A DNA stretch of 38,588 nucleotides from Candidatus Margulisiibacteriota bacterium (GTDB lineage: Bacteria > Margulisbacteria > WOR-1 > O2-12-FULL-45-9 > XYB2-FULL-48-7): NCBI GenBank assembly GCA_018822365.1, contig JAHJKL010000074.1, positions 1 through 38,588 on the forward strand, read 5' to 3'. The translations under genes and the position numbers were made by a program. Shown here piece by piece: positions 4,950-27,718 of the stretch; position 1 is the stretch's first letter, and each line of letters starts with the position of its first letter. The notes under the pieces were generated by a model. It made no database searches, was not told where the DNA came from, and was given only the letters and a program-made list of their open reading frames with translations.

Positions 4950-6233
4950 TTAGTGGAGTAATTTAGCTTTTTGTTTTGCGCTTTTATTTTCCAGTTCATC
5001 CTTGGGTTCGTTCATTGTTTTCAGATATTCAGGGGTTACGATATGCGGCGTGACAAAGACCAGCAACTCGTCTTTCTCCTTGCTGATCACGGTTTTTCGA
5101 AAAAACGCGCCGATGACCGGGACATCCATCAGGAAGGGGACGCCATAATCGGTTTGGACATCTTTTTCTTTCGTCAGTCCGCCGATGACAAAAGTCTGGC
5201 CATCGTTAACCACGACCTCGTTTTTGGTTTCAGTCGTATTTTCCTGCGGCAGGTCACCCACGACCGATCCTTCGCTGACCTTAGGGGCGACCTTCATCCT
5301 GATCAGGCCGTTCTTTGAAACGTTGGGGGTGATAGCGAGCGAGGTGCCGACCGAAAGGAAATTGACGACCTGGGTAGTGGTCGTATCGGAGATCACCGTG
5401 GTCTTGTAGCCGTACTTGGCGCCGATCAGGATCGTCGCCTCTTTGTTGTTCATGGTGGTGATCCTTGGGGAGGCGATGACGTTGTAATTGGTGTTGGTCG
5501 CCATGGCGGAGAGATAGCTTTCGACGTTAATGTCGGTATAGACCTTGAAGATCTGCCCGTAGAGGCCCTGGGCGGGATTGTCGCCCGGTCGCCCGGAAAG
5601 GTTTTTAGTTTGGACCACGTCATTGGCGTTGGTCGACTTGGTCGCTTTGATGTCGACCCCTAAATTGGCGTTATTGCCGGTGCGGACTTCAATGATCTTG
5701 GCTTCGACCATGACCTGGATCGGCGGCACGTCGAGCTCCTTGATCAACCTCTCGATCCGGGGGAGGTAGTCGGAAGAGGTTTGGATCACCAGGGCGTTGT
5801 AGGCGTCATCAGCAGTAACGGTGCTTCCTGAAGGGAGGATCGCGGTCAAAGTCGTCTGGAGATCGGTCGGTTTGGCATTGGCCAGATAGTAGGTGCGCAG
5901 GATCTTCTTGGTCGAGACAAAGATCGTTCCCGACTCTTCGAACCAATCCAACCCTTTGGTCCGCAGGACCGCTTCCATTCCTTCTTTCGGGTCGATCCCG
6001 GAGAAGGTTACAGTGACCTTTCCGGTCACGTCGTCCGCTGCGACAATGTTGACCTTGGTCGCCTTGGCAAAGATCTGCAGGACCGATTTGACATCGGCAT
6101 CCCTTAAGTTGAGATACACCTTTCCCTTGCTGATGGTGACATTTTCCATCTGTTTGGCCGGGGCGGCAAAAGCGCCGGTCTGGCAGAGGAGCAGGATCGA
6201 ACAGAGCAAAACGAGACTGACTGTTTTTTTCAT
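4950..6233 (-). CDS. pilQ: Type IV pilus secretin, PilQ-like
   Basis: A 427-residue exported protein (signal peptide about residues 1-23, cleavage near AFA-APA). Residues 35-105 look like an STN/N0-type domain (LRDADVKSVLQIFAKATKVNIVAADDVTG), residues 108-175 like an N1 domain (YYLANAKPTDLQTTLTAILPSG...LPRIERLIKELD), and the rest is the secretin gate and barrel domain, ending with the diagnostic NDGQTFVIGGL and VPFLMDVPVIGAFFRKT motifs. It would form the outer-membrane channel through which the pilus passes. It is shorter than proteobacterial PilQ, lacking the AMIN domains. It starts 2 bp after the pilP-like gene and closes the pilMN-O-P-Q operon. GspD is an alternative label, but the neighbours support PilQ. 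Confidence 0.9.
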   Translation of the reverse strand: MKKTVSLVLLCSILLLCQTGAFAAPAKQMENVTISKGKVYLNLRDADVKSVLQIFAKATKVNIVAADDVTGKVTVTFSGIDPKEGMEAVLRTKGLDWFEESGTIFVSTKKILRTYYLANAKPTDLQTTLTAILPSGSTVTADDAYNALVIQTSSDYLPRIERLIKELDVPPIQVMVEAKIIEVRTGNNANLGVDIKATKSTNANDVVQTKNLSGRPGDNPAQGLYGQIFKVYTDINVESYLSAMATNTNYNVIASPRITTMNNKEATILIGAKYGYKTTVISDTTTTQVVNFLSVGTSLAITPNVSKNGLIRMKVAPKVSEGSVVGDLPQENTTETKNEVVVNDGQTFVIGGLTKEKDVQTDYGVPFLMDVPVIGAFFRKTVISKEKDELLVFVTPHIVTPEYLKTMNEPKDELENKSAKQKAKLLH

Positions 6234-6235
6234 GA

Positions 6236-6715
6236 TTATTTTTCCTCCATTTTTAAAGTTTTTTCCGACGACCCTTTTCTGATAATGACCCGGTCTTTAT
6301 AAATTGCGGTGACTTTCCAGTTCATGACCGTTCCTCCAACCGGGACCGCCTGGCCGGAAATAAACGCGATCCTCATATCCGTATCCCACCAGATCCCTTC
6401 CAATTTGGGTAAAGCTGGCGGCGCTTCTTTTGGCTCTGTTGGGGCCGCCTTGGGCTGGGGTTTGACCTCAAACTCTTTGATCTTGATCCTCAAAGCGAAA
6501 GGGTCGACCAATTCTTTGAATTCTGGCTCTGGCGCGGGAAGCGGGGCGAGGGATGTTGTCGCGGCGGTTTCCGTGGTGGCAGGCGCCGATCTATTGGGGG
6601 GGGGTGACTGGAAGTTTGGTTGAGGAGCCGGGAGGTTTGTCTCGTTTGGCTGGTAGTAGGCATAGAGCGCGTATAAGGCGGCGACCAAAGCAACCAACGA
6701 TAATAATATTTTCAT
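6236..6715 (-). CDS. PilP/GspC-like pilus alignment protein
   Basis: A 159-residue protein with one N-terminal membrane segment (about residues 3-22), a long Pro/Ala/Thr-rich periplasmic linker (about residues 25-110), and a C-terminal small beta domain: LEGIWWDTDMRIAFISGQAVPVGG followed by WKVTAIYKDRVIIRKG. The pattern of an interaction segment followed by a beta domain (WW....AFI.G..V..G..V..W.V..I..D.V) is that of PilP and the GspC HR domain, which link the inner-membrane PilN/O complex to the secretin. The ATG at 6715 is preferred over a GTG 9 bp upstream because AAAGAG lies 8 bp before it. Position directly before pilQ supports the call; the PilP name rests mainly on order and topology. 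Confidence 0.7.
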   Translation of the reverse strand: MKILLSLVALVAALYALYAYYQPNETNLPAPQPNFQSPPPNRSAPATTETAATTSLAPLPAPEPEFKELVDPFALRIKIKEFEVKPQPKAAPTEPKEAPPALPKLEGIWWDTDMRIAFISGQAVPVGGTVMNWKVTAIYKDRVIIRKGSSEKTLKMEEK

Positions 6716-6734
6716 AGAGTACACTCTTTATATT

Positions 6735-7244
6735 TTAGTAATAGGCTATCAGAGTCATTGTTATGTCAAGCGTCGGATCTTTCGCGCCATTGGAGAAGCA
6801 GTCGAGTATGTCAATTATAACGATTATTGGAAGATCATTCAAATAGACCATGAAGTCGTAGAGATTTCTATATTTACCGGAGCAGGTAAGGCTGAATTTA
6901 AGCCGCCCCTGTTCCTGGCTCTGGATTGGACGAACGGTGATCAGATTCAGTTTTGATCTGGTTGTGACCTGGGAAATGCTTTGCAGGGTTTGCAGGGCTC
7001 GCCTCTGGGTGGAAGATGGAGTGTCTGGCCGTATGACCCCAGATTTATCTTGCAGTATTTCCAGGATCCTGATCTTTTTTTCCGCGACTTGAAGGTCCAG
7101 ACGGAGTTCCTGGCGTTTTTCCCTGGCGATTTTGAGTTCCCGCAGAATTGGGGAAAAGAAAAAGAGATCAAACATATAGATGGCAATGACCAGCGCCATA
7201 ATGGTTAACAGGTTTCTTTCCCGGTTCGATAATTTATTGAGCAT
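6735..7244 (-). CDS. PilO-like pilus alignment protein
   Basis: A 169-residue bitopic inner-membrane protein. Residues 12-31 are the single membrane helix, residues 35-65 are coiled-coil-forming (LKIAREKRQELRLDLQVAEKKIRILEILQDK), and the C-terminal part (about residues 85-169) is a ferredoxin-like PilO/GspM-type domain with SGKYRNLYDFMVYLNDLPIIVIIDI. PilO pairs with PilN to align the inner-membrane pilus motor with PilP and PilQ. The ATG at 7244 follows an AAGGAG ribosome site that lies within the end of pilMN, 2 bp upstream. Function is inferred from topology, fold pattern and position between pilMN and the pilP-like gene. Confidence 0.75.
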   Translation of the reverse strand: MLNKLSNRERNLLTIMALVIAIYMFDLFFFSPILRELKIAREKRQELRLDLQVAEKKIRILEILQDKSGVIRPDTPSSTQRRALQTLQSISQVTTRSKLNLITVRPIQSQEQGRLKFSLTCSGKYRNLYDFMVYLNDLPIIVIIDILDCFSNGAKDPTLDITMTLIAYY

Positions 7245-7246
7245 TA

Positions 7247-8842
7247 CTACTCCTTGATTCGGCCGACAATCTCAAAATTAAATGATTCCACGTTGTGCTG
7301 GTAGTTTTTTACCGCCTGGACGAGTTGAACATCTTCCAGAACCGGTGAAGTCGAAAGGTTTAAAACAAAATAGGATAGGATGTTTTCGGCTGAATCGTTA
7401 TATTTGTAGGCCGTCCCCCAAAGGTGGAGGCTGTTGATCGTCATTTTGATGCTGTTAATAGTGACGCTAACGGGAATATAATTACTAAGCTCTTCAAAAA
7501 CCCTTGGAATTTGGGTCCGTTTTTCCTTAAACGACGTCATCATTAGTCTCTTTTGCTCTTCTTCGGCGGAGTCTTTTTCGAGCTGGCTAAATCTTGTTAA
7601 CCTGGGTTGATAATAAGTCAATCGGGCGTTAAGGTAGTTGTTATCCTGCTGAAGCAGGACCGCTTGCGCCCAAAAGATTAGGTAAACCGCCGCCAGAACC
7701 CCGAAAAAAGCCGGGAAAATGACGACCGGTCGCGAGAGCTTGCTGGAGATAAGTTTCCAGCGGTTCTTCACGTCGTCAGGCAAAAGGTTGATCTTGTTTT
7801 TGCCGGCCAGCACCGCGCCGATCGCGGCCGAGAGCCGCGGATTGTGATCAAACTTTAGTTTGGGGATTTCAATTGGGATCCCCAGTCCGGCCTCCAGAAA
7901 TTCCTTGAAGTTCGGGGTAAGCGAACTCCCGCCGGTCAGGATAATTTTGTTAACGGTCGCTTCTCCGCTCTGTCCTTTGTAATATTCGATGGTCCGGGCG
8001 ATCTCGCCCAAGACTTTTTCCAGAGCGGGGCGGACCATCGCTTGCAATTGGGAGATGGGGAGTTCCCTAACCTTGGGAAAATTTTCAGCGTTGATCGGGA
8101 TCCCGTACGCCATTTTTATTTTTTCAGCTTCATCCAGGGATATTTCAGCTTTCCCTTCAGCGGAAACAATTATCCCCGACATCGCCAGCGTGATCGCGTC
8201 GCCGCCGATGGGCAGGTCCCGATTGAATTCAAAGATCCCTTTGCGGAAGATGCTGATATTGGTGCTTTTTTTTCCGAGATAAATAACAGCAACCAATTTA
8301 TCGGCGCTTTTTGCCAGTTCTTCCTGATAGAGCTCCTGCAGGGCGAGCGGAAGAACGTTGATGCCGGCTAAATTCAGGCCGGCTTTAGATAAAATATGCT
8401 GGTATTGATGATAGGTTTTACTGCTCAAGCAGGCGGCAACATAGTTGGTTCTATCACCGGCCGGCGTTTTTTCCTTGGGCAGGGGATAGAAATCAATGAT
8501 TGCTTCTTCGATCGGGAAGGGGATCTCCTGGGTGAACTTCCACCGGATCGCTTCCGCGACCTCCGATTCGCCGACCCCGACCAGGGAGACTAATTTAACC
8601 GCCGACAATTCTCCGCCGGCGGCGACATAGGCTTCTTTGGCCTTGATGCCATGAACATCAAGTAGTTTGCGCAAAGCGTCGGCTTTGGCGTTTTCAACTT
8701 CGGGGTGATCTTGAAGCTTGGCGGGGATTTCCGTGATCCCCCATTTTTTTATGGTTGGACCCTGTTCAGTAATCTCGACCTCGACCACTTTAACTGAACT
8801 TACACGGAGGTCAATCCCTAAGGCTGATCTTTTCCACGGCAT
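7247..8842 (-). CDS. PilM-PilN fusion protein of the type IV pilus
   Basis: A 531-residue fusion. About residues 1-350 are the actin-like PilM ATPase (ALGIDLRVSSVKVVEV phosphate-1 region, GGSSLTPNFKEFLE, AAIGAVLAG). From about residue 355 the sequence continues as PilN: KINLLPDD, the cytoplasmic tail motif that PilM normally binds, then a membrane helix (VVIFPAFFGVLAAVYLIFWA), a coiled coil and a PilN periplasmic domain. The usual DIG of the second phosphate loop is YLGKKST here, so nucleotide chemistry may be altered. The ATG at 8842 is chosen over an upstream TTG (8851), because TTGACA-N16-TATAAT places transcription start about 8 bp before the ATG and the TTG would lie inside the -10 box. 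First gene of pilMN-O-P-Q. Confidence 0.9.
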   Translation of the reverse strand: MPWKRSALGIDLRVSSVKVVEVEITEQGPTIKKWGITEIPAKLQDHPEVENAKADALRKLLDVHGIKAKEAYVAAGGELSAVKLVSLVGVGESEVAEAIRWKFTQEIPFPIEEAIIDFYPLPKEKTPAGDRTNYVAACLSSKTYHQYQHILSKAGLNLAGINVLPLALQELYQEELAKSADKLVAVIYLGKKSTNISIFRKGIFEFNRDLPIGGDAITLAMSGIIVSAEGKAEISLDEAEKIKMAYGIPINAENFPKVRELPISQLQAMVRPALEKVLGEIARTIEYYKGQSGEATVNKIILTGGSSLTPNFKEFLEAGLGIPIEIPKLKFDHNPRLSAAIGAVLAGKNKINLLPDDVKNRWKLISSKLSRPVVIFPAFFGVLAAVYLIFWAQAVLLQQDNNYLNARLTYYQPRLTRFSQLEKDSAEEEQKRLMMTSFKEKRTQIPRVFEELSNYIPVSVTINSIKMTINSLHLWGTAYKYNDSAENILSYFVLNLSTSPVLEDVQLVQAVKNYQHNVESFNFEIVGRIKE

Positions 8843-8850
8843 TAACGCCA

Positions 8851-8878
8851 ATTATATCGGAATAAAGGTGATTGTCAA
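8851..8878 (-). promoter_or_regulatory. pilMN operon promoter, consensus and predicted leaderless
   Basis: Minus-strand TTGACA (8878-8873), 16 bp, TATAAT (8856-8851): both hexamers are perfect. The -10 box ends 8 bp before the ATG at 8842. The -35 overlaps the stop codon of the preceding GT-C gene, so the pilus operon gets its own promoter inside an otherwise continuous minus-strand gene run. Confidence 0.8.
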
Positions 8879-17504: not shown

Positions 17505-18241
17505 TGTTCACGGCTGAAACCAAGGGTGTTCCCGCAGTATTGGTGTTTTATTTTGAATAATTCGATCAAACAGTTAAGGTCAGAGCGGAGTTTGACCTTT
17601 GAACCTTCGACATAGCCCCATTCCACCGGCGCTTCGACGACTTTTAGGCCGGCCTGACGCGCCGCGTATAAGATGTTGCTGTCAATCATCGACGATTTGC
17701 ATTTCAAGCTTGGCAGGATGTTTTTCGCCGAGGCGGTTTTAAAAATCTTTATGCCGCAGAAAGGATCTCTTACCCGGGTGGCGAGGATTGATCGGACGCA
17801 AAAACCGGCCAGCGAGCTGTTTAATCTTCGGATTAACGGTGGTTGTTTCCGGATGAAGGAAGAAGGGAGTTTTCTGGAGCCGAAAACTATGTCGGCCGAT
17901 CGCGTGTAGGGGAGGAGTCGGTCGAGCTGTTCCGGAGCGATCGCCCCGTCAATGTCGATAAAGGCGAAAAGCGGAGCGGTTACCTGCCGCAACCCATGAA
18001 TAAAGGCCGCTCCTTTACCTTTCTCGCTTATGACCAGGACTTTTAGCCGCTGGTGCTTGTTGGCCAACCGTTCAACGATTTCAAAGCTTTTATCCGTGCA
18101 GCCGTTCAGGACTACGGTCATGGAAAATTCCAGGCCATAAAGCCGGGTTAAATGGGAGTAGAACGCTTCCAGCGTGCGGTGGCCGAGCAATCGTTTTTCT
18201 TCGTTATAGGCCGGGAAAATCACCTCAAAGCGGCTGGTCAT
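17495..18241 (-). CDS. Family 2 glycosyltransferase, dolichyl-phosphate-glucose/mannose synthase-like
   Basis: A 248-residue GT-A fold enzyme without C-terminal membrane helices. The N-terminal strand is VIFPAYNEEKRL, the nucleotide-binding region has NGCTDKSFEIVERL, and the metal-binding DXD-type motif is in FAFIDIDGAIAPEQLDRLL. GSRKLP and RVRDPFCGIKIFKTASA are typical of polyprenyl-phosphate sugar synthases of the DPG/DPM group. It probably loads a hexose from a nucleotide sugar onto polyprenyl phosphate on the cytoplasmic side. Its ATG overlaps the receiver-domain gene stop (ATGA) and its stop overlaps the GT-C gene, matching a donor-maker followed by a donor-user. Confidence 0.87.
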   Translation of the reverse strand: MTSRFEVIFPAYNEEKRLLGHRTLEAFYSHLTRLYGLEFSMTVVLNGCTDKSFEIVERLANKHQRLKVLVISEKGKGAAFIHGLRQVTAPLFAFIDIDGAIAPEQLDRLLPYTRSADIVFGSRKLPSSFIRKQPPLIRRLNSSLAGFCVRSILATRVRDPFCGIKIFKTASAKNILPSLKCKSSMIDSNILYAARQAGLKVVEAPVEWGYVEGSKVKLRSDLNCLIELFKIKHQYCGNTLGFSREQCT

Positions 18242-18609
18242 GGCGCCATCAGATGCTTATTGATAACGTCTATCAGATTGTCAACTTCAAATGGCTTCAA
18301 GAAAACATCGTTAATTCCGGCCGCCCGGCACCTGTTGGTAATATCAGCAACATCAAAGGCGGTTAAAGCGATAATTGGAGTGGCTCTGTTAAAACGACTT
18401 GTTCTGGCGCGTCTCGCGACCTCAAATCCATCGACCCTTGGCAACATAATATCAAGCAGGATAAGATCAAACTTTTTCCTGGCCAAAACTTCTAAGGCCT
18501 TTTCCCCGGTCTCGACCCCTTGAAACTCGTAGCCGGCCGTTTCAATAATCTGTTTGAACATGGAAAGGGTTGCCGGGAAATCTTCAATAACGAGGACCGA
18601 TTTAGCCAT
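18238..18609 (-). CDS. Stand-alone response regulator receiver domain
   Basis: A 123-residue CheY-like protein and nothing else. The acidic pocket is Glu9/Asp10 (VIEDF), the phosphoacceptor is Asp53 (LILLDIMLPRVDG), the switch Thr83 lies in PIIALTAFD, and the conserved Lys105 is in FLKPFEVD. With no output domain it must act through protein contact. No histidine kinase is encoded in the window. It overlaps the TPR-AAA ATPase gene by 8 bp and the GT2 gene by 4 bp, so it may control the ATPase or the pilus or export machinery; this is inference from position. Confidence 0.92.
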   Translation of the reverse strand: MAKSVLVIEDFPATLSMFKQIIETAGYEFQGVETGEKALEVLARKKFDLILLDIMLPRVDGFEVARRARTSRFNRATPIIALTAFDVADITNRCRAAGINDVFLKPFEVDNLIDVINKHLMAP

Positions 18610-20185
18610 TATTGTTCTCCCTTATGATATTTTGTCCGGGATTGGCCAGCTCAATTTCATTCTTGTAAGCCGCGACGTCTGGAGCGTCGATAACATTTTT
18701 GCCGGCTCGCATCGCCTGGGTAATAACCCAATCGCTGATCTTAAGAATGCCGCGGGGAATGCCGTAACTTAGGTCGAATATTTTTTCAACCGCGGTGGTG
18801 GTAAAAGGTCCCAGCCCTTTCCCGCCGGCGTTGGAAATCCTTTTTTGCAGTAGATCTTTAGTTTCTTCCAGAGAAAGCGAGCCGAGCAGGATGCTTTCCA
18901 CGATCCGATCAAACAAAGCGGGAAGGTCGCGTTTTAGTTTTTCCCGCGCTTGAGGCAAACCAGCCATGACCAGCGTGACATTTTGCAGGTCGCCCAGAGT
19001 CCTGATGAACTGCTCGAATTCCTCGTTAAACTCGTGGGCTTCGTCAAGGAAGATGATTATCGGGCGTTTGCTGGCCCGACAGAACTCCTGAAACTCATAA
19101 ATGGTGTACTTTTTGGTATGGGTCGTTTTTTTGGTGATTGTTGCGGAAACCAGGTCGATTAATTCATCCGGTCGGCTGGGGGGGCGAATAACATAAATGG
19201 TTTCAAAGCGTTTTTTCAGGTTTTTCTCCAGCCACTGCAATAAGGTTGACTTGCCGGTCCCCAGGCCGCCAATTACTAAAATATGGCCGCTGGCGGTATT
19301 TATTTTTTCGATGATCATTGAGATTTCAGTTTGATGTCCGGCGTAAGTGTCCGGAATAATGCTTAAGGTAAAAGGATTTTTCTGCCAATCAAATTTAGAA
19401 AACCAGCTCTTTTGGGTATCGGTCAGATCAGGAAGCTTCAGGCGATAACCGCATTTTTTGCAAAATTCCGCGTCTCTGGGATTGAAAGTGCCGCATTCAT
19501 CACAGCGTGTAAGCCTGGCCAGCCGCCAGTTGGAAATCAGCTTGTATATTAACAACATAACCAGCGCGGCAAAAACCGCTAAGTAGGGAGCGACAACGTA
19601 AGTAAGATCATTGGTTTTTTGGGGTAAATCGACCGGCGCGGCGGCTTCCAGGGAAATTTTCGCTTGGATTTCGGCCAACAATAATTTTGAATCAGGATAA
19701 TTGGGGATAATTGATTCGATTTGTAACAGGTAATTGATCGCCTCGATCGGCCGGCCGCCGGTAAAACTTTCTTTTGCCGCCAGAAAGAGTTGCAACGCTC
19801 GGGCGTTCTTGGCCTGTTGTTGAAGATCAGCGTCTTTTTTCTCTGGCGCGGCGCGGCGCGGCCGCGGCGCGATTACTGGCTTTGGTGTCGGGACAGGAGT
19901 CGGGACAGGGGTCGCGACTGTCTTTGGGATTGGAGCCGGGGGTGGGGTTGGCTTTTCCCCTGTCCCTTGAATTTCACTGAGGAAAGACCGTGCTTTGGCG
20001 TTGTTTGGCTCGTACTTCAAAACCTCATTCAAGTTTTTAATTGCTTCATCGTTGTTGCCGATAAAATACTGGTTGACGGCCTGATCATAGAGCTCGTCGA
20101 TGGTGGTTGGGAAAGCGGGGGCCGCGGAAAAAAATAGTAATAAAAACAGGCCGACCGCTAGCCGGTTATCGCGTGTGCTTTTCAT
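18602..20185 (-). CDS. Membrane-anchored TPR / zinc ribbon / ExeA-like AAA ATPase fusion
   Basis: A 527-residue protein in four parts. Residues 1-26 are a signal sequence or anchor. Residues 28-75 and 125-180 are TPR-like helices flanking a Pro-rich linker (79-113), predicted periplasmic. Residues 197-216 are a membrane helix followed by a positively charged stretch (NWRLARLTR). Then come a cytoplasmic four-Cys zinc ribbon (Cys228, 231, 242, 245) and an AAA ATPase of the ExeA/GspA type: Walker A GGLGTGKS (306-313), Walker B IIIFLDEAH (376-384), and an arginine-containing region (LPALFDRIVESILLGSLSLEE). In ExeA the ATPase is N-terminal and the periplasmic part binds peptidoglycan; here the order is reversed. 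AAGGAG precedes the ATG. It probably couples ATP use to envelope assembly. Confidence 0.85.
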   Translation of the reverse strand: MKSTRDNRLAVGLFLLLFFSAAPAFPTTIDELYDQAVNQYFIGNNDEAIKNLNEVLKYEPNNAKARSFLSEIQGTGEKPTPPPAPIPKTVATPVPTPVPTPKPVIAPRPRRAAPEKKDADLQQQAKNARALQLFLAAKESFTGGRPIEAINYLLQIESIIPNYPDSKLLLAEIQAKISLEAAAPVDLPQKTNDLTYVVAPYLAVFAALVMLLIYKLISNWRLARLTRCDECGTFNPRDAEFCKKCGYRLKLPDLTDTQKSWFSKFDWQKNPFTLSIIPDTYAGHQTEISMIIEKINTASGHILVIGGLGTGKSTLLQWLEKNLKKRFETIYVIRPPSRPDELIDLVSATITKKTTHTKKYTIYEFQEFCRASKRPIIIFLDEAHEFNEEFEQFIRTLGDLQNVTLVMAGLPQAREKLKRDLPALFDRIVESILLGSLSLEETKDLLQKRISNAGGKGLGPFTTTAVEKIFDLSYGIPRGILKISDWVITQAMRAGKNVIDAPDVAAYKNEIELANPGQNIIRENNNG

Positions 20186-20200
20186 GTTCGCTCCTTTCGC

Positions 20201-21451
20201 TTAGTTCTTTTTATCAAGGGAAAGTATAAATTCTAATTTCTTTTTTAAGTTTTGAGCCTGTTCGTTGTCCGGGTCTTTTGCCAGCGCCCGTTTGACCTGT
20301 TCCAGCGCGGTTTTGTACTGCCGATTGACGACCGATTTCATCGCTTCGCCAAGGTAAATAAGCGAATCGGCCCGGCCCTTTTCGGTCAGCTGTCTTTCCA
20401 GTTTGTTTTGGGCTTCTTTTTGCAGGGCCAGGGCGTCGCTGTTGTCCGGGTTCATTTCCAGCACTCTGGAGAAGAGGACCAGCGCGTCCAAATACTCCCC
20501 CTTATCATAGCTCTTTTTTCCGGCGGAGAGAAGTTCGTAATAAGGGGAAGTCGCGGTCTTAATCTTGGCCGGAGAATCCAGGAGAATGCCAAGGCTGAAC
20601 TGATGCGCCCCCCCCAGCTCCTGATGGCTCAAATAAGCGTAGTCAAACGAAAACCGGTCGGCCGCCAGGCCGATCCCGGCGCGCGGCAGACCGCCGTCAC
20701 TGCCGAGCCGGACGGCTAAAAGATTTTTAACCAGATATTCGGCTCCAACATTGAACCTGGTCGTGTCGGGATAAAAAACGATGTCAGTATTAACCTTGAG
20801 GGGGGCGTTATAAAAGGGAATAGTCCAGCCGGTCGCCAGCCGGTAGGCGGTCGGCAGGGGGGTGGTGTCGGAAATGAACTTCAAACCAGGTCCGTAGTTA
20901 ATGACCGCCAGGCCCAAATTAAGGACGGAGTTAGCTTTATACAGTAATCCGGCGTCAAGCGCCAGGGTTGTCGCGGCGCTTCCCTCCAGCCGTTCCGAAA
21001 TCAATCTGACCCCGCCCCCAATCGAGAGGTCGGTATTGAGCTTTCTCGCCAGCGAGAGGTTAAACCCATAAGAATAAGTGTTAAATGAAGAGGTTAAGGC
21101 GCCGTTCTGGTCATACCCCTGGATATCGCCGGAGCCAAACGATAAATAACCGAGCCCAACCGTTCCTATGTTCGTTGGATAAGCGACTGCCGCGGCCTGG
21201 TAGGCGGTCGAACCAAAAGATTGCCCGTACAGGGTCATAGCTTCCGGGAGAATTAGCTGGCTTAATCCGGCAGGATTGAAAAAAATGGCTGAAAGATCGC
21301 CGGGTTGCGCGGTAAAAGCGTTCCCCATGGCCAGAGGCCTTGCCCCCGCTCCAAGCTTTAAAAATTCCACACCGGAGCCGGACCCGGGCGCGGCAAAGGC
21401 GGCCGTTCCCCAAAGGAAGCAGACAATATAGAACAGCGCGTTCTTTTTCAT
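20201..21451 (-). CDS. PorV/PorQ-like outer membrane beta-barrel protein with TPR tail
   Basis: A 416-residue exported protein (signal peptide 1-20, AFA-AP). The mature start GSGVEFLKLGAGARPLAMGNAFTAQPGDLSAIFFNPAGLSQL is the hallmark of the PorV/PorQ-type (UPF0164) barrel family related to FadL. In type IX secretion, PorV carries substrates bearing a C-terminal sorting domain. Alternating hydrophobic strands continue to about residue 300. About residues 305-416 are TPR repeats (YDKGEYLDALVLFSRVLEMNPDN and QYKTALEQVKRALAKDPDN), an unusual addition that would lie in the periplasm. Its ATG overlaps the stop of the upstream gene (ATGA), whose product ends in a sorting-like domain, so the pair may be substrate and carrier. 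Confidence 0.82.
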   Translation of the reverse strand: MKKNALFYIVCFLWGTAAFAAPGSGSGVEFLKLGAGARPLAMGNAFTAQPGDLSAIFFNPAGLSQLILPEAMTLYGQSFGSTAYQAAAVAYPTNIGTVGLGYLSFGSGDIQGYDQNGALTSSFNTYSYGFNLSLARKLNTDLSIGGGVRLISERLEGSAATTLALDAGLLYKANSVLNLGLAVINYGPGLKFISDTTPLPTAYRLATGWTIPFYNAPLKVNTDIVFYPDTTRFNVGAEYLVKNLLAVRLGSDGGLPRAGIGLAADRFSFDYAYLSHQELGGAHQFSLGILLDSPAKIKTATSPYYELLSAGKKSYDKGEYLDALVLFSRVLEMNPDNSDALALQKEAQNKLERQLTEKGRADSLIYLGEAMKSVVNRQYKTALEQVKRALAKDPDNEQAQNLKKKLEFILSLDKKN

Positions 21452-24400
21452 CTGATAATTACCAATTTTCCTGTCGAAGTCCCGCCAGTCGCTTTAACGA
21501 CATAAAAATAGAGGCCGGAGGTCAATAGTTCACCGGCTTCATTCCTGGCATCCCAGTTAAATTGTCCATTGCTGGTGTTGCTGATCGTTTTTACCAGGTC
21601 GCCGGAGAGGGTGAAGATCTTGATCACTCCCTGGGTCGGAATGTTGCTAAAAGTTATAGAGGAGTGTCCGAGCGATGGTTTATAGGGGTTGGGAAAGGTG
21701 AAGACCGCGCTGGAATCAGTGGCTGAAGTCGCCATCAGAGCGTAGACTGAAAAACCGGTGATCGGAGCGGAGACCAGGTGATTAACCAGGTCGACAGTCG
21801 AACCGGGAAGACGGACCCAGAGGCCGTGGCTTTCATCGAGCCGGTAGATCATCAAATTGGCGGCCGGGACCGGTGGGGTTGTTCCGTCAATAACTCCATC
21901 GTTGTCAAGATCATCATAGAAGAAGGTCAGGGTAACTGATGAGGCAAAACTGGTCGAAACTCGTGATCCATAGGCATCAAACGCGTTGAGTTCGGTGATT
22001 GATCCCGCGCCGCCCGCTTTGCTGTTTGCCAGCGTGATCTTAGCCGGGTCGACAAACCGAGGTTGAGTGATCGGGTTCTGGTTGATATCAACCAGGCCGT
22101 CGACAGGCAACGCCCCGCCCGCCAAAACAACCCGCACTTTACCATCACTGCTGTAGAAGGTGTTGGCCGCCGCCTGGTCGTAAGTAACGGTAAAAGACCA
22201 GCTTTCAGCGGTTGCCAGCGCGCCCAGATCGGCGTTTTTCGCGTTAGTTGAGATCGTCGCCTGATAGGTGTAGCCTTTTTCCATGGCGGCCAACGGTGTG
22301 AAATAAAGCGTCTGGCCCGAGGCGTCCCAGGTGGAACTTCCCGAAACCGCCGGCGATTCTAACGAAACGGCATTGTTATCGCGGATCGCTTTTAAGGTCA
22401 GGGCGTTTATTGTTGACGGCTGGTCCATCACCTGGCTGAACTGGATGGCAAGGGTGGCGTTGGGACGGATGTTGATCGCGCCGCTGGTTGGCGTCAGAGT
22501 TGTGATATTTGGGGGTGGGGAGATAGTGAAGGCGTTGGAAACAGCCGCGGTCAAACCGCTCGCGTTGGCGGTCAGCGTATAACCGGAGCCGGGATTATTG
22601 CTTGATAAATCATTAAAAACAACGGTTCCATTGGTTGCTGTTTTAGTCAAAGTTCCGGCCAGTGTGCCGCCGGCCGGGTTACTGCCGAGGCTAACGGTTA
22701 CCTGGGTGGAGCTGTCGGAAACAATATTGTTGCCCAACGCATCCTGGATTAAGACCTGAACTTCCGGGGTGATGACGGAATTGGCCGGGGTGGTTGCCGG
22801 CTGGACGGAAAAAACGACCTGGGCGGCCGTGGCGGGAGAGATGTTAAAGGAGTCGGTTATGGCTGAAGTTAAACCGGACGCTGAAGCGTTTAGCGTATAA
22901 CCGGTCCCGGTTTTGTTGATGCTAAGGTCGTTGAAAGTTACGATTCCGGCCGCGGCGGTTTTTGTCAGCGTCCCGGCGAGCGTTCCACCGCCGGGATTAT
23001 TGGCAATGGCGATCGTGACCGGGGTGCTGTTATCCGCCGTGTCGGTGTTTCCGTCCGCGTCCTGGATTATTACTTGAACCGAAGGAGAAATAATGGTCCC
23101 AGCGACGGCGCTTGTCGGCTGAACTGCACAGGCAAGCCGGGTTGAAGTCGATTTCCAGGCGGCGTAGCGGTAGTCGACCAGGTTGGCATTAACCGTCGCG
23201 TTGGTCCCAACTTGGAAACCGTCGGTCTCCAGAGCCTGCACCATGTCAAGAGCGTTGGCGGTCGCGGTGAAATATTGAGCGCTGTCGCCGCTCAAATTCC
23301 TGGCTTTTTGGACCGCTCCGCTGGTGAGTTCCGGTCTCTTGATCCAGGCGAGTCCGGGCCGAAAGCCCAGTCCGCTGATCGAGCGGTTATCAATGCCATT
23401 TCCGGTATATGCCCCAACAGTGCATTGGCCGGTGGTGTTTTTAAAAGCAAAATAAAAATAAGTGGAGGCGGCGGTGTTGACTTCGGCGTTGGCGCCAATT
23501 TGAAAGCCGTCCGTTTCCAGCGACTGGACGCGATCGGCGGTATCGGCCGTGGCCGAGAAATACGCGGTCGCGTCGCCGGCGATGGCGGATGTTTTGAAAA
23601 CGCCAAGCGAAGCGGCATTCCTCTTGACCACGACGAGATCTGGGGTAAAGCCCAGCCCAGTGATGGAGCGGTTATCGAGTCCGGTCCCGGTGTAAGCGCC
23701 AACCGTGAAATTGCTGGACCCGGAGCCGCTGAAAGCGATCCAGCGGTAGGTGACCGCCAGGCTGTTAACAGCCGCGTTCGCCCCAACGGTGAAACCAGTG
23801 TTATTACGCGAGACTATTCCATTGACGAAATTTACCGCGGCGGTGGCAAAAGTAGCGGTCGAATCAGAAGCCATCATAGGGGAGGAAAAGACCGCGGCGC
23901 CGGTTGAGTCTGATTTTATTATCACCAGTTCCGGCTGGAACGGCAGGTCGGCAATCGACTGACTGGCGCCGTTCCCTACATAGGAGCCGCTGATCATCCG
24001 GAAAACTCCGCTGGGGGTTGTGGTTGGCACCCCCCTGAAGCCGACGCAGTAATAAACACTGGCGTTGGCGTTGACCCTGGCGTTAGTTCCGACCGAGAAG
24101 CCGCTGGCTTCTAATGTCTGGATATGATCAACCGCATTGGCGGTAGCGGAGAACAATTGGGTTTCGTCGCCATAATTCCGATTGTTGCGCATGACGGCGA
24201 CATTGGCGGCGGCTGATTGTTTTACCCAGACAAGATCCGGTTTGAAGCCCAGAGCAATTGAGCGGTTATCTACTCCGTCACCGGTGTAGCTTTCGATGGT
24301 CAGACTGTCCGCCCCGGCTTTAAAGGTGAAGTAGTAATAGGTCTGGCCGTTCAGGTTGACTTCAGCGTCACTCCCAACCTGAAAACCATCGCTCTGCAAA

Positions 24401-24948
24401 GCCTGAATCCTGTCAGCGGTCGGGGCGGTAGCCGAAAAATAGTGGGTGTTATCGGCCCCCATTTTTGAGGTGGACCAGACTCCCAGCGAGGCGCCGTCGC
24501 GTTTAATGACAGCCAGGTTTGGTTGAAAGCCTAAACCGGTAATGTTGCGGTCGTCGGCGCCTGTGCCGGTATACGAACCGACTTTAAAATCGTTGCCGCC
24601 GCTCCCGGAAAACGCGACCCAGGTATAGCGGATATTGGCCGCGTTAACGCCGGGGTCGGTGCCAAGCGAAAAGCCGTCGGTATTTAAAGTAGTAATGGCT
24701 CCGGAATAATTATACGCGGCGTTTTCAAAGTAAGCGGTTCAATCAGAGGCCATAGCGGACGACCGCCAGACCGCCCGGCCGGCGGCAGTATCCGCTTTTA
24801 TGATAACAAGGTCAGGGGAGAGGCCAAGTCCGGTTATTGACCGGGGAACGCCGGAGCCAACGTAATAACCGGAGCGCATTTCAAAAGCGTTGACGCCGCC
24901 GATCCAAAAAAGAACAATGGCCGCAACGATTATAACCGTTTTTTTCAT
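21448..24948 (-). CDS. Large repeat-containing surface protein with FlgD/sorting-like C-terminus, interrupted by one in-frame TGA
   Basis: A frame of 1166 codons broken by TGA at 24741-24739 (codon 70). Residues 1-21 are a signal peptide. The first half holds about six copies of a roughly 95-residue repeat with the core YxGxGxxxRSIxGLGFxPDLVxVKR. Next come two bacterial Ig-like domains (each starting near VQPxxxxAxxxIxPxVQVxIQDAxGN), a Big_5-like domain (LTPTSGAINIRPNATLAIQFS), a linker domain, and a C-terminal domain with FPNPYKPS, GVIKIFTLSGDLV and TSGLYFYVVKA, as in FlgD-like and type IX type A sorting domains. Repeat similarity continues unbroken across the TGA, where sister repeats have Ser after MASD. 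The rest could only be made separately from a start such as the ATG at 24462. The carrier-like barrel gene follows. Confidence 0.8.
23140..24885 (-). repeat. Six tandem coding repeats of about 290 bp in the surface protein
   Basis: Six successive protein units begin near 24885, 24590, 24300, 24010, 23720 and 23430. They share a Y(T/V)GxGxxxRSI start, an LGFxPDLVxxK strand, a D(A/S)TxYFxATAxxxDxVQxLExDGF middle and a TYxYxAFK-type end. The units are diverged, which argues against recent slippage. Confidence 0.75.
24739..24741 (-). other. In-frame TGA stop inside the surface protein gene
   Basis: The codon string reads GCC TCT GAT TGA ACC GCT. In the fourth repeat the equivalent is GCT TCT GAT TCG ACC GCT, so Ser (TCA or TCG) is expected. 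A single C-to-G change from TCA would create it. TGA ends many other genes here (accB, yqeY, glyS, gspH-like), so general recoding is excluded. Confidence 0.8.
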
Positions 24949-25055: not shown

Positions 25056-25574
25056 ATGAAATTACAGTGCCCAGAGCGCCTCTGTCGAGCCGGATTCACG
25101 ATGATTGAACTGATCATTGCCATGGTCGTAATGGTGATCGTTGCCTCTTACACTTTTATTTCTATAACTCCTTACCGCGGGGTCAAGCTCGACGCGGCCG
25201 CCAAAAAAGTCGCTTTTGACCTCTCCTACGCCAGGAACATGGCGCTGGTCATGACCGAATGGTATGGCGTAACTTTTGAAGCGGCGCCAAACAATTCATA
25301 TACGATCTACAAAACTGATGGGACGACTGATTCCATAATCGCCGATCCGGCCGGAGGTCCGTTCAGCGTTAATCTTGCCCGGATATTTAATGGCGTTGAG
25401 ATCTCGGCGGTAAATATTGTTGGAGGAAAAAAAGTGGAGTTTGATCCCCTGGGGGCTCCTTACGTTGATAAAGGAGGAGCCGCGGTTTCTCCTGAAGCGG
25501 CCATCACCTTAAGCTACCAGGGGAGGAGTAAAAGTATTTACATTACGCCAGGCACCGGGAGGATTCACAACTGA
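25056..25574 (+). CDS. GspH/FimT-like minor pilin
   Basis: A 172-residue prepilin with leader MKLQCPERLCRAG and processed start FTMIELIIAMVVMVIVASYTFI (Glu5 present). The following region (KVAFDLSYARNMALVMTEWYGVTFE) is typical of GspH/FimT-like minor pilins, where an alpha helix leads into a beta-rich head. The mature head ends SKSIYITPGTGRIHN. Minor pilins of this type join a small tip or priming complex that starts pilus assembly. It is the first of four pilin-like genes in one operon; its TGA overlaps the next ATG by one base (TGATG). No disulfide-forming Cys pair is present in the head. Confidence 0.85.
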   Translation: MKLQCPERLCRAGFTMIELIIAMVVMVIVASYTFISITPYRGVKLDAAAKKVAFDLSYARNMALVMTEWYGVTFEAAPNNSYTIYKTDGTTDSIIADPAGGPFSVNLARIFNGVEISAVNIVGGKKVEFDPLGAPYVDKGGAAVSPEAAITLSYQGRSKSIYITPGTGRIHN

Positions 25575-25957
25575 TGAGAAAAGGGTTTTCCTTGATTGAA
25601 CTGGTCATCGCCGTTGCCATCCTGGGAATTGTTATGTATTCTCTGATCACGATCTACATCACCACCGGGCTAAAAGGCTCCACCGCCGAGATCTACACCA
25701 TTGCTCAATATCTGGCGGCGGAAAAAATGGAACAGACACTGGGAGGGTCATTTGAACTGGCCGTTAACCAGGCGCAGACCAATTTTACCGGAGACCTTGC
25801 CCAATACTCGTTTCAGATTAACTTCAACTATACCACTCCCGCGGATTTTAACGCCAGCGTCGCCGGACCGACCGATTATAAAAAAGTCGCCGTTTTGATC
25901 CGTCATCCCAGGCTGGGGAGCCCGCTTGAGCTCGCGGTAATCAGGGCGAATTATTAA
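25574..25957 (+). CDS. GspI/PilV-like minor pilin
   Basis: A 127-residue prepilin with a very short leader, MRKG, then FSLIELVIAVAILGIVMYSLITIY (Glu5 present). It is followed by TAQYLAAEKMEQTLGG-like sequence (here TIAQYLAAEKMEQ), the (A)xxKMEQ element typical of GspI and PilV-like proteins. The small head ends with VAVLIRHPRLGSPLELAVIRANY. It is likely a tip-complex subunit paired with the GspH-, GspJ- and PilX-like products encoded next to it. The start overlaps the upstream stop, and 1 bp separates its stop from the next gene. Confidence 0.83.
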   Translation: MRKGFSLIELVIAVAILGIVMYSLITIYITTGLKGSTAEIYTIAQYLAAEKMEQTLGGSFELAVNQAQTNFTGDLAQYSFQINFNYTTPADFNASVAGPTDYKKVAVLIRHPRLGSPLELAVIRANY

Positions 25958-25958
25958 T

Positions 25959-26438
25959 ATGAAAAAAGGTTTTTCCCTGATTGAAAGCATTCTCGTCATA
26001 ACTCTTCTCGGCCTGATGTTTTCCGGGATAGCGATCTTCATTCAGGAAAGTCTCAACTCCTGGCTCTTTTTCAGCGCGCAAAAAGAACTGCTTTCTGAAG
26101 CGACCGGAGCGATGAACCGAATGACGCGGGAACTACGGATTGCCGATAAGAACGTAAGCATTATTGTCCACACTCCGACGCAGGTGACCATTCGCGATAA
26201 GCTTGGTCATGAGATCTCTTTCGCGCAGGACGGCTCTTCCCTGAAGAGGAATGGCGTTATCCTTGCCGGGAACCTGGCCGATCCAGGCGGACTCTCTCTC
26301 CGCTACTTGAGAGACGACGGGACTGACGATCCAAACATGAGTAATGTCTCATCCATTTGGATCCGCCTGACACTGGTCAAGGAAAACAGCAAGGTCGCGC
26401 TCGAATCATCGGCGGCAATAAGGATAAAAAATCTATGA
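25959..26438 (+). CDS. GspJ/PilW-like minor pilin
   Basis: A 159-residue prepilin: leader MKKG, then FSLIESILVITLLGLMFSGIAIFI (Glu5 present). The segment LLSEATGAMNRMTRELRIADKN is the long helix that marks GspJ/PilW-like subunits, followed by VTIRDKLGHEISFAQDGSSLKRNG, a beta hairpin pattern common in this group. Third gene of the minor pilin operon. Its TGA overlaps the next ATG (ATGA), which fits equimolar synthesis of a tip complex. Confidence 0.83.
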   Translation: MKKGFSLIESILVITLLGLMFSGIAIFIQESLNSWLFFSAQKELLSEATGAMNRMTRELRIADKNVSIIVHTPTQVTIRDKLGHEISFAQDGSSLKRNGVILAGNLADPGGLSLRYLRDDGTDDPNMSNVSSIWIRLTLVKENSKVALESSAAIRIKNL

Positions 26439-27718
26439 ATAGAAAGGGGGTAACGCTGGTCGCGGTAGTATTTATCATTTTAGCGTTAACCATGCTGGTC
26501 ATTTCGTTGAGTTCACTCTTTTTTTCCGGAAGTTCCCTGGCGGTCAGGGGCTATTCCTCCCTTAGAACTTTTTATATCGCCAACGCCGGTCAGGAATATT
26601 ATTTAAAGCTATTGGGAGAAGACCAGGACTGGTCAACCCCCCCCTCCTCGGAAACAAAGGCTTTTAACGGCGGCTTCTTTTCGATCGGCACCTCCAGCGC
26701 CTCAAAAGACTCGATCGTGGTAACCGTCACCGGGGTCTTAACCACGGAAGGAATAGCGTATATCCGGGTCATTAGACCGACCATCAATCGGACCGGAGGA
26801 GGAGGCCTGCCGTTCAACTTTGATTACGCCCAATATTCAGGGAGCGGCGGCGGCGCGACCTTGATCATTTCAGGCAACGCCAGGATTTACGGTGATTATT
26901 ATTACAATGGCCCGATCTCGATGCGAAATTCCGCCCAACAGCTTGACGGCACGATTTACAGCACCAGCATCGCTCTTTCTGGTACGGCCGGCTACGCTTC
27001 GTGGGAGGCGAGTCCGCCGATTGATCTGCCGACCTGGGACAATTCGCATTATGACGGCATTCTGGCTTTGACCAATGTCAGCGCCGGCAGTTCTTTGAAC
27101 CTGGGCTGGGGAGATATTTTAAACCTTAACGGGAACACTCTATATTACCGGAATGTCACGATCGGCTCGGGAGCGACCGTTAACGGCCCGGGGACTTTGG
27201 TCTCAACCGGCAAACCGAGCGGGAACGGAGATATTATTATCAACTACGGCGCGGGGATTGGCGGCGGGATTAGATTCGTCGCTAATCGCTATTTCACCTG
27301 TCAGGGGGGCTCGAGCATAACGGTCAGCTTTGAAGCTTACTCAAAAAGCGGCACCAGGATATATAACGGCTTGACGGTCCCGTCCGGCTCCATTCTTTAT
27401 TCTTCCTACAACGGCAATGGAGCTCTCAACCTTCAAGGGAATATTACCGCCACCATGCTTGCTCCTTACGGGCGAATCAATACCAGCGGCGGCTGGACTA
27501 TCCGGGGGCTCTTATATTGCACCCGTCTTGTTCCCGGCTCTTCCGGCACGATTCGGGGAGCGATTGTCAGCCAGACCACTTCGACTTTGGGTGGTTCGCT
27601 CGCGTTATACTATGATGAAGCTTATTTACCGACTTTGGTAATCGGCCTTGGTGGATCCGGGACCGGAGAAGGGGGAGTCGGCAGTTGGGAAGCGGCCGAC
27701 TGGCTGGAAATTTACTAA
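26435..27718 (+). CDS. PilX/GspK-like pilin with a long beta-rich domain
   Basis: A 427-residue protein with a pilin-like N-terminus MNRKG|VTLVAVVFIILALTMLVISL. Mature position 5 is Ala, not Glu; loss of Glu5 is characteristic of GspK and many PilX proteins that cap the tip. SLRTFYIANAGQEYYLKLL matches the PilX-N helix (the A-xAGxE element). From about residue 130 the protein is rich in Gly, Ser and short beta repeats (ISGNARIYGDYYYNG, TLYYRNVTIGSGATVNGPGTLVS), suggesting a right-handed beta-helix or similar adhesive head that normal PilX lacks. The ATG at 26435 (ATGA overlap) is used instead of an upstream ATG at 26357. Role: probable large tip subunit. Confidence 0.78.
   Translation: MNRKGVTLVAVVFIILALTMLVISLSSLFFSGSSLAVRGYSSLRTFYIANAGQEYYLKLLGEDQDWSTPPSSETKAFNGGFFSIGTSSASKDSIVVTVTGVLTTEGIAYIRVIRPTINRTGGGGLPFNFDYAQYSGSGGGATLIISGNARIYGDYYYNGPISMRNSAQQLDGTIYSTSIALSGTAGYASWEASPPIDLPTWDNSHYDGILALTNVSAGSSLNLGWGDILNLNGNTLYYRNVTIGSGATVNGPGTLVSTGKPSGNGDIIINYGAGIGGGIRFVANRYFTCQGGSSITVSFEAYSKSGTRIYNGLTVPSGSILYSSYNGNGALNLQGNITATMLAPYGRINTSGGWTIRGLLYCTRLVPGSSGTIRGAIVSQTTSTLGGSLALYYDEAYLPTLVIGLGGSGTGEGGVGSWEAADWLEIY

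What the first reader, a model, noticed from the sequence alone, without database searches (positions are those of the whole stretch)
18602..24948. Possible type IX-like export module: sorting-domain protein, PorV-like barrel with TPR tail, and TPR-AAA ATPase
Three adjacent genes encode a large repeat protein ending in an FlgD/sorting-like domain, a PorV-type outer-membrane protein with an added periplasmic TPR domain, and a membrane ATPase with its own periplasmic TPR region. The first two are coupled by ATGA. In type IX secretion PorV shuttles substrates with such C-termini. A TPR on each side of the periplasm could dock the inner-membrane ATPase to the barrel, an arrangement I do not know from described systems.
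Basis: inference. Interest (0 to 1): 0.68.

Follow-up and report, generated by a model that had tools for sequence, protein, structure and literature searches.

The report
Sorting-tail protein, PorV-like barrel, TPR-ATPase operon
An uncultured bacterium of the phylum Margulisbacteria carries a conserved operon that pairs a large surface-type protein bearing a type IX secretion signal with its own PorV-like outer-membrane barrel and a membrane ATPase, although the usual type IX channel, motor and sortase were not found, so how such proteins reach the surface there is an open question.

Summary
The three genes are real. The C-terminal tail is a type IX (type A) sorting domain by fold: its best solved relatives are PorZ, PorU and a substrate tail bound to SprA-PorV, ahead of FlgD. 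The middle protein is a 14-strand PorV-family barrel with a periplasmic TPR tail. The third is signal peptide-TPR-transmembrane-zinc ribbon-AAA.

The order tail-barrel-ATPase is conserved: all 7 orthologous TPR-barrels found in 70 genomes have the ATPase next door. Six further loci have the TPR as a separate gene between barrel and ATPase.

The wider pattern is larger than the finding. PorV-like genes occur in 73 of 74 phylum genomes, up to 22 each, and 46 of 58 sampled have a sorting-tail gene directly upstream. Several of this genome's barrels carry SLH or LysM wall-binding domains. SprA_N was found in no phylum genome, GldM in none convincingly, C25 sortase in only two outer genomes; these searches can miss members.

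The module resembles SprB-SprF / PorP-PorE substrate-shuttle pairs with an added ATPase, and in one relative it lies inside a type IV pilus/secretin operon. The translocon is unidentified. The ATPase is accessory: most tail-barrel pairs lack it.

The parts
21448..24948 (-). Tail (cargo-like) protein gene: signal peptide, DUF7483 repeats, Big_5, C-terminal T9SS-type domain. Read from 24948 it is interrupted by TGA at 24739-24741; mechanical ORF 21448-24462
21451..21735 (-). C-terminal sorting-type domain (95 aa modelled, seven strands)
24739..24741 (-). In-frame TGA at codon 70 of the tail gene
20201..21451 (-). PorV-family barrel with C-terminal TPR (416 aa); ATGA overlap with the tail gene
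20207..20572 (-). TPR helices of the barrel protein (residues 294-415)
18602..20185 (-). Signal peptide-TPR-TM-zinc ribbon-AAA_22 ATPase (527 aa)
19544..19606 (-). Transmembrane segment of the ATPase (residues about 194-214)
   Evidence: hydropathy
18238..18609 (-). CheY-like receiver protein overlapping the ATPase gene; present after the ATPase in at least five loci
4950..8851 (-). Type IV pilus/T2SS-like operon part: secretin (4950-6233), PilP-position gene (6236-6724), PilO-like (6735-7244), PilM-PilN fusion (7247-8851); directly linked to the cassette in G005
25056..27718 (+). Minor pilin-like genes, divergent from the tail gene; homologues next to the cassette in G005 and G028

Best explanation
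The cassette is a surface-protein display module built on type IX parts. The large Sec-exported tail protein ends in a type A sorting domain that docks on its own PorV-like barrel, encoded by the next gene, which holds (and perhaps collects) it at the outer membrane, as SprF does for SprB. The barrel's periplasmic TPR tail contacts the N-terminal periplasmic TPR of an inner-membrane AAA ATPase of ExeA/GspA type; ATP hydrolysis, perhaps gated by the co-transcribed receiver, assembles or positions the complex, probably together with the neighbouring type IV pilus/secretin machine. Shown: domains, folds, topology by sequence, conserved gene order, tail-barrel pairing, TPR split/fusion. Inferred: docking, ATPase and receiver roles, surface location, and the route across the outer membrane.
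For: Tail fold: best PDB hits PorZ 1.2e-6, PorU 1.2e-4, NucA tail bound in the T9SS complex 3.1e-4 (TMt 0.74); FlgD ranks 14th. Barrel: 14 strands, best hits PorV 8gl6_F 1.6e-14 and 6h3i_F 2.8e-13, then FadL-type 1.9e-9. Pairing: 46 of 58 sampled PorV genes have a tail gene directly upstream against 3 of about 168 other ORFs, Fisher p 5e-33. Cassette: 7 of 7 TPR-barrels have the ATPase beside them. In six other loci the TPR is a separate gene between barrel and ATPase, and its C-terminus aligns with the barrel's TPR (Prob 89.5, E 2e-6). In G005 one strand runs minor pilins-tail-barrel-ATPase-receiver-like-PilMN-PilO-PilP-secretin. SprB/SprF pairs and the PorP-PorE complex (PorE has TPR and wall-binding domains) are described in PMC12618676 and PMC9143113; ExeA is needed to assemble a secretin (PMC4098917).
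Against: No translocon was identified, so surface location is not shown. A TPR can bind many partners; no interface was modelled. The ATPase's family match is remote (TIGR03015 77 bits, cut-off 324) and no ExeA-like wall-binding domain was seen. Pilus linkage is seen in 3 of the 7 complete loci only and may be inherited synteny. In this genome the tail gene carries a premature stop.
Confidence: 0.5

Rival explanations
1. Reduced type IX-like secretion: tail proteins leave through a large barrel distantly related to SprA (the ~1000-aa family 'S1', in this genome G000:C15), with the PorV-like barrels as shuttles; the TPR-ATPase is one cassette's energiser.
For: S1 shares N-terminal segments with SprA (hhalign 98.3% over SprA 607-780, 96.5% over 12-447; TIGR04189 down to 1.9e-8 in the own S1), occurs at high score in most class genomes including all 7 cassette genomes, lies directly downstream of a PorV-like gene in G004, G005, G011 and G017, close to one in G020, and one gene from a type 2 cassette in G013.
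Against: No SprA_N domain. In several other phyla S1-like barrels coexist with a true SprA in the same genome, mostly not next to PorV, so S1 looks like a paralogous family. Its C-terminal barrel does not align with SprA.
Confidence: 0.2
2. The tail protein is a pilus-associated surface protein: it takes the place of a PilY1-type adhesin beside the minor pilins and leaves through the secretin, while barrel and ATPase are assembly factors of that pilus/T2SS-like machine.
For: G005 has minor pilins, tail, barrel, ATPase, receiver-like, PilMN, PilO, PilP and secretin in one run on one strand; minor pilins flank the cassette in the window and in G028. ExeA-type ATPases assist secretin assembly (PMC4098917).
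Against: The other four complete type 1 loci have no pilus genes beside them. Most tail-barrel pairs of the phylum stand alone. PilY1 similarity was not tested beyond position.
Confidence: 0.2
3. Barrel and tail protein are an anchored cell-envelope structural pair (tail as adhesin or S-layer-like protein, barrel as wall-tethered anchor) with no transport role; the ATPase senses or maintains the envelope.
For: Five own barrels carry SLH repeats and one a LysM; the TPR could be another tether. PorP-PorE is an anchorage complex (PMC9143113).
Against: A tail protein still has to cross the outer membrane, so transport is needed somewhere; type A tails are secretion signals where tested (PMC12618676).
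Confidence: 0.1

Closest known systems
Type B CTD substrate-SprF/PorP pairs, with PorE (Bacteroidota T9SS)
   Same: Substrate gene directly followed by its own FadL-fold shuttle barrel; many pairs per genome; a periplasmic TPR and wall-binding partner (PorE).
   Different: Here the tail is type A by fold, the barrel is PorV-family, wall-binding SLH/LysM or a TPR is fused to the barrel, an ATPase is added, and no SprA, GldM or C25 sortase was found in this genome.
PorV/type A CTD of the canonical T9SS
   Same: Barrel and tail folds match PorV and type A tails best.
   Different: One shared PorV for all cargo there, a paired barrel per cargo here; TPR fused to the barrel; no PorU-type C25 sortase or SprA_N found.
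ExeA/GspA and PEP-CTERM-type ATPases (TIGR03015)
   Same: AAA_22 core, one TM, periplasmic domain, link to a secretin operon in one relative.
   Different: Reversed order (periplasmic part first), TPR instead of a wall-binding domain, zinc ribbon after the TM; score far under the TIGR03015 cut-off.

Membership tests
Type IX secretion system | SprA/Sov translocon (SprA_N, full TIGR04189) | tested here: not met
   SprA_N in 20 of 143 genomes, none in the phylum; TIGR04189 only as short segments in the phylum, none over cut-off. Caveat: G135 has GldM but no SprA_N hit, so the search can miss.
Type IX secretion system | PorLM/GldLM motor | tested here: not met
   GldM (TIGR03517): one strong hit outside the phylum, three weak fragments in outer families of it, none in this genome. 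GldL, GldK and GldN were not searched.
Type IX secretion system | C25 sortase PorU | tested here: not met
   PF01364 not in this genome or its class; in two outer genomes of the phylum, common in others.
Type IX secretion system | Type A CTD on cargo | tested here: met
   TIGR04183 3.7e-7 (cut-off passed); fold nearest PorZ, PorU and the NucA tail.
Type IX secretion system | PorV-family shuttle | tested here: met
   NF033709 passed, PorV equivalog cut-off not reached; 14 strands, best PDB match PorV.
Type IX secretion system | Cargo exported and surface-anchored | not testable with these tools
   needs experiment
Type B CTD-SprF/PorP pair | Shuttle gene directly downstream of its substrate gene | tested here: met
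   46 of 58 sampled loci and the window.
Type B CTD-SprF/PorP pair | Type B CTD and PorP/SprF-family barrel | tested here: not met
   Tail matches type A (TIGR04183), barrel matches PorV_fam.
ExeA/GspA ATPase | Cytoplasmic AAA_22 with one TM and a periplasmic domain | tested here: met
   Domains, TM; topology inferred from the positive-inside rule.
ExeA/GspA ATPase | Periplasmic peptidoglycan-binding domain | tested here: not met
   None among the Pfam matches shown (best 25 of 36); TPR instead.

The most novel reading that the evidence does not exclude
An outer-membrane export and display system that uses type IX tails and PorV-like shuttles without SprA and without the proton-driven PorLM motor, in which an inner-membrane TPR-ATPase drives cargo through TPR-TPR contact with the barrel.
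Probability: 0.15. Interest if true: 0.88.

Novelty: new variant of a known kind. Interest (0 to 1): 0.62.

Why it matters
T9SS is described as specific to Bacteroidota and as needing SprA and a proton-driven motor. A phylum that keeps up to about 20 PorV-like barrels per genome, many paired with type A tails, but with no recognisable SprA or (in its main class) sortase, either hides a second translocon or shows that the substrate-shuttle pair is separable from SprA. The cassette adds an ATPase and a pilus link that give concrete test points. No paper found in the held library reports this for Margulisbacteria/Saganbacteria, which is a limited search.

Tried and rejected
1) 'FlgD-like' as the identity of the tail: FlgD scores below T9SS tails by fold. 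2) S1 as the missing SprA: it shares N-terminal segments with SprA, but S1-like barrels coexist with true SprA in other phyla, so it is kept only as a rival. 3) A link between the type 2 TPR protein and S1 through an Ig-like domain: weak (72%). 4) SprA_N in the own genome alone was uninformative because its controls were silent; repeated with working positives. 6) Paper searches for T9SS in Margulisbacteria returned nothing useful.

Full report
OBSERVATION. The window (contig 74 of a 1.68 Mb, 95% complete genome) carries, on the minus strand, a tail-protein gene ending at 21448, a barrel gene 20201-21451 overlapping it by ATGA, an ATPase gene 18602-20185 and a CheY-like receiver gene 18238-18609 overlapping the ATPase gene. 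The nearest named relatives of the ATPase are MAGs of Candidatus Margulisiibacteriota / Saganbacteria / WOR-1. The tail gene starts at 24948 with a signal peptide, but codon 70 is TGA (24739-24741) where a relative has Ser: a nonsense change, strain variant or assembly error; these cannot be told apart here.

PARTS. The tail domain, modelled from 15 sequences (pLDDT 87), has seven strands; its four best PDB matches are PorZ, PorU (two chains) and the NucA substrate tail in the T9SS complex, while FlgD comes 14th. The barrel model (13 sequences, pLDDT 85) has 14 strands (70-290) followed by five helices (294-415) of TPR type; best matches are PorV from SprA complexes, then FadL; by sequence the profile also finds PorV 6h3i_F at 2.2e-14. 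The ATPase has a signal-peptide-like N-terminus, a TPR, one strong TM (about 194-214) followed by basic residues, a CxxC...CxxC zinc ribbon and an AAA_22 core. This puts the TPR in the periplasm and the AAA in the cytoplasm (inference from the positive-inside rule).

CONSERVATION. TPR-barrel orthologues form a clean group of 7 genomes (534-651 bits; next 224 bits), and all 7 have the ATPase beside them in the same order. Weaker full-length PorV-plus-TPR homologues occur in outer families of the phylum (e.g. G053, G039, G032, about 175-190 bits); these were not checked for an ATPase. An eighth type 1 ATPase (G016) is cut by a contig end. In six further loci the order is tail - barrel without TPR - small secreted protein ending in a TPR-like helix pair - ATPase (in two of the six the tail gene lies beyond the contig end); that small protein's C-terminus aligns with the barrel's TPR tail. 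The TPR is thus fused in one version and separate in the other, which argues that barrel and TPR act together. A receiver follows the ATPase in at least five loci. In G005 the cassette lies inside a run minor pilins-tail-barrel-ATPase-receiver-like-PilMN-PilO-PilP-secretin on one strand; in G028 and in the window the minor pilins are adjacent and divergent.

THE WIDER PATTERN. PorV-family genes occur in 73 of 74 phylum genomes, up to 22 per genome. In a hand-picked sample of high-scoring PorV loci (L126-L185), 46 of the 58 with an upstream ORF have a directly upstream same-strand gene whose end matches a profile made from 21 tails; only 3 of about 168 other ORFs do. In the own genome the pairs are on C27 (twice), C29, C83, C64, C71 and C74. 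Five own barrels carry SLH repeats and one a LysM, i.e. wall-binding parts fused to the barrel, much as PorP is tied to the wall by PorE (PMC9143113). The sample was taken from the stronger hits, so 79% is not a phylum-wide rate, and ORFs of one genome or family are not independent, so the Fisher value overstates the certainty.

MISSING PARTS. SprA_N is found in 20 of 143 genomes, none in the phylum. Full SprA (TIGR04189) passes its cut-off in 16, none in the phylum. GldM gives one strong hit outside the phylum (G135) and weak fragments inside. C25 peptidase is absent from the class and present in two outer genomes. GldK, GldL, GldN and PorT were not searched. One caution: G135 has GldM but no SprA_N hit, so these searches are not perfect. 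Short SprA-like segments in the phylum belong to two other large barrel families (S1 about 1000 aa, S2 about 1360 aa). S1 follows a PorV-like gene in several genomes, but S1-like barrels coexist with true SprA in other phyla, so S1 is not counted as SprA.

READING. The module works most like a SprB-SprF pair (PMC12618676): cargo with a tail, next gene its shuttle or anchor. The ATPase belongs to this cassette and is not a general motor, since most tail-barrel pairs have none. Its likely job, by analogy with ExeA (PMC4098917), is to assemble or energise an envelope complex through its periplasmic domain, here a TPR facing the barrel's TPR. Docking, ATPase role, surface location and the route across the outer membrane are inferred. 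The route (S1, secretin, an unrecognised SprA or the barrel itself) is the open question.

MEMBERSHIP. It is not filed as a T9SS, because the translocon, motor and sortase were tested and not found; two T9SS parts (type A tail, PorV-family barrel) are met. It is filed as a new variant of the substrate-shuttle pair.

Noticed in passing
window 24739-24741 (-): In-frame TGA at codon 70 of the tail gene; a relative (L079) has Ser at the aligned place.
   Followed up: partly
L049, L054, L055, L056 (SLH); L052 (LysM): PorV-like barrels of the same genome carry C-terminal SLH repeats or LysM, i.e. probably wall-tethered barrels.
   Followed up: partly
L189:31-3015 (-); L060:6786-10850 (-): Two conserved giant barrel-like families (about 1000 and 1360 aa) share short segments with SprA; the first is often next to PorV-like genes or ruvC.
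   Followed up: partly
L089-L102: DPANN archaeal relatives of the ATPase (about 32% identity); those read lack TPR and TM and carry a C-terminal part that looks like a winged helix.
   Followed up: no
L082:5917-7002 (+): A contig labelled Altiarchaeota encodes a TM-zinc ribbon-AAA version without TPR, 41% identical in the AAA part; lineage or binning uncertain.
   Followed up: no
window 7247-8851 (-): PilM and PilN domains are fused in one protein in the pilus/secretin operon.
   Followed up: no
L062:14921-19999 (-): A second very large tail-bearing protein lies directly upstream of the cassette in G023.
   Followed up: no
G135 (whole genome): Strong GldM hit but no SprA_N or TIGR04189 hit listed, either a real oddity or a limit of the search.
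   Followed up: no
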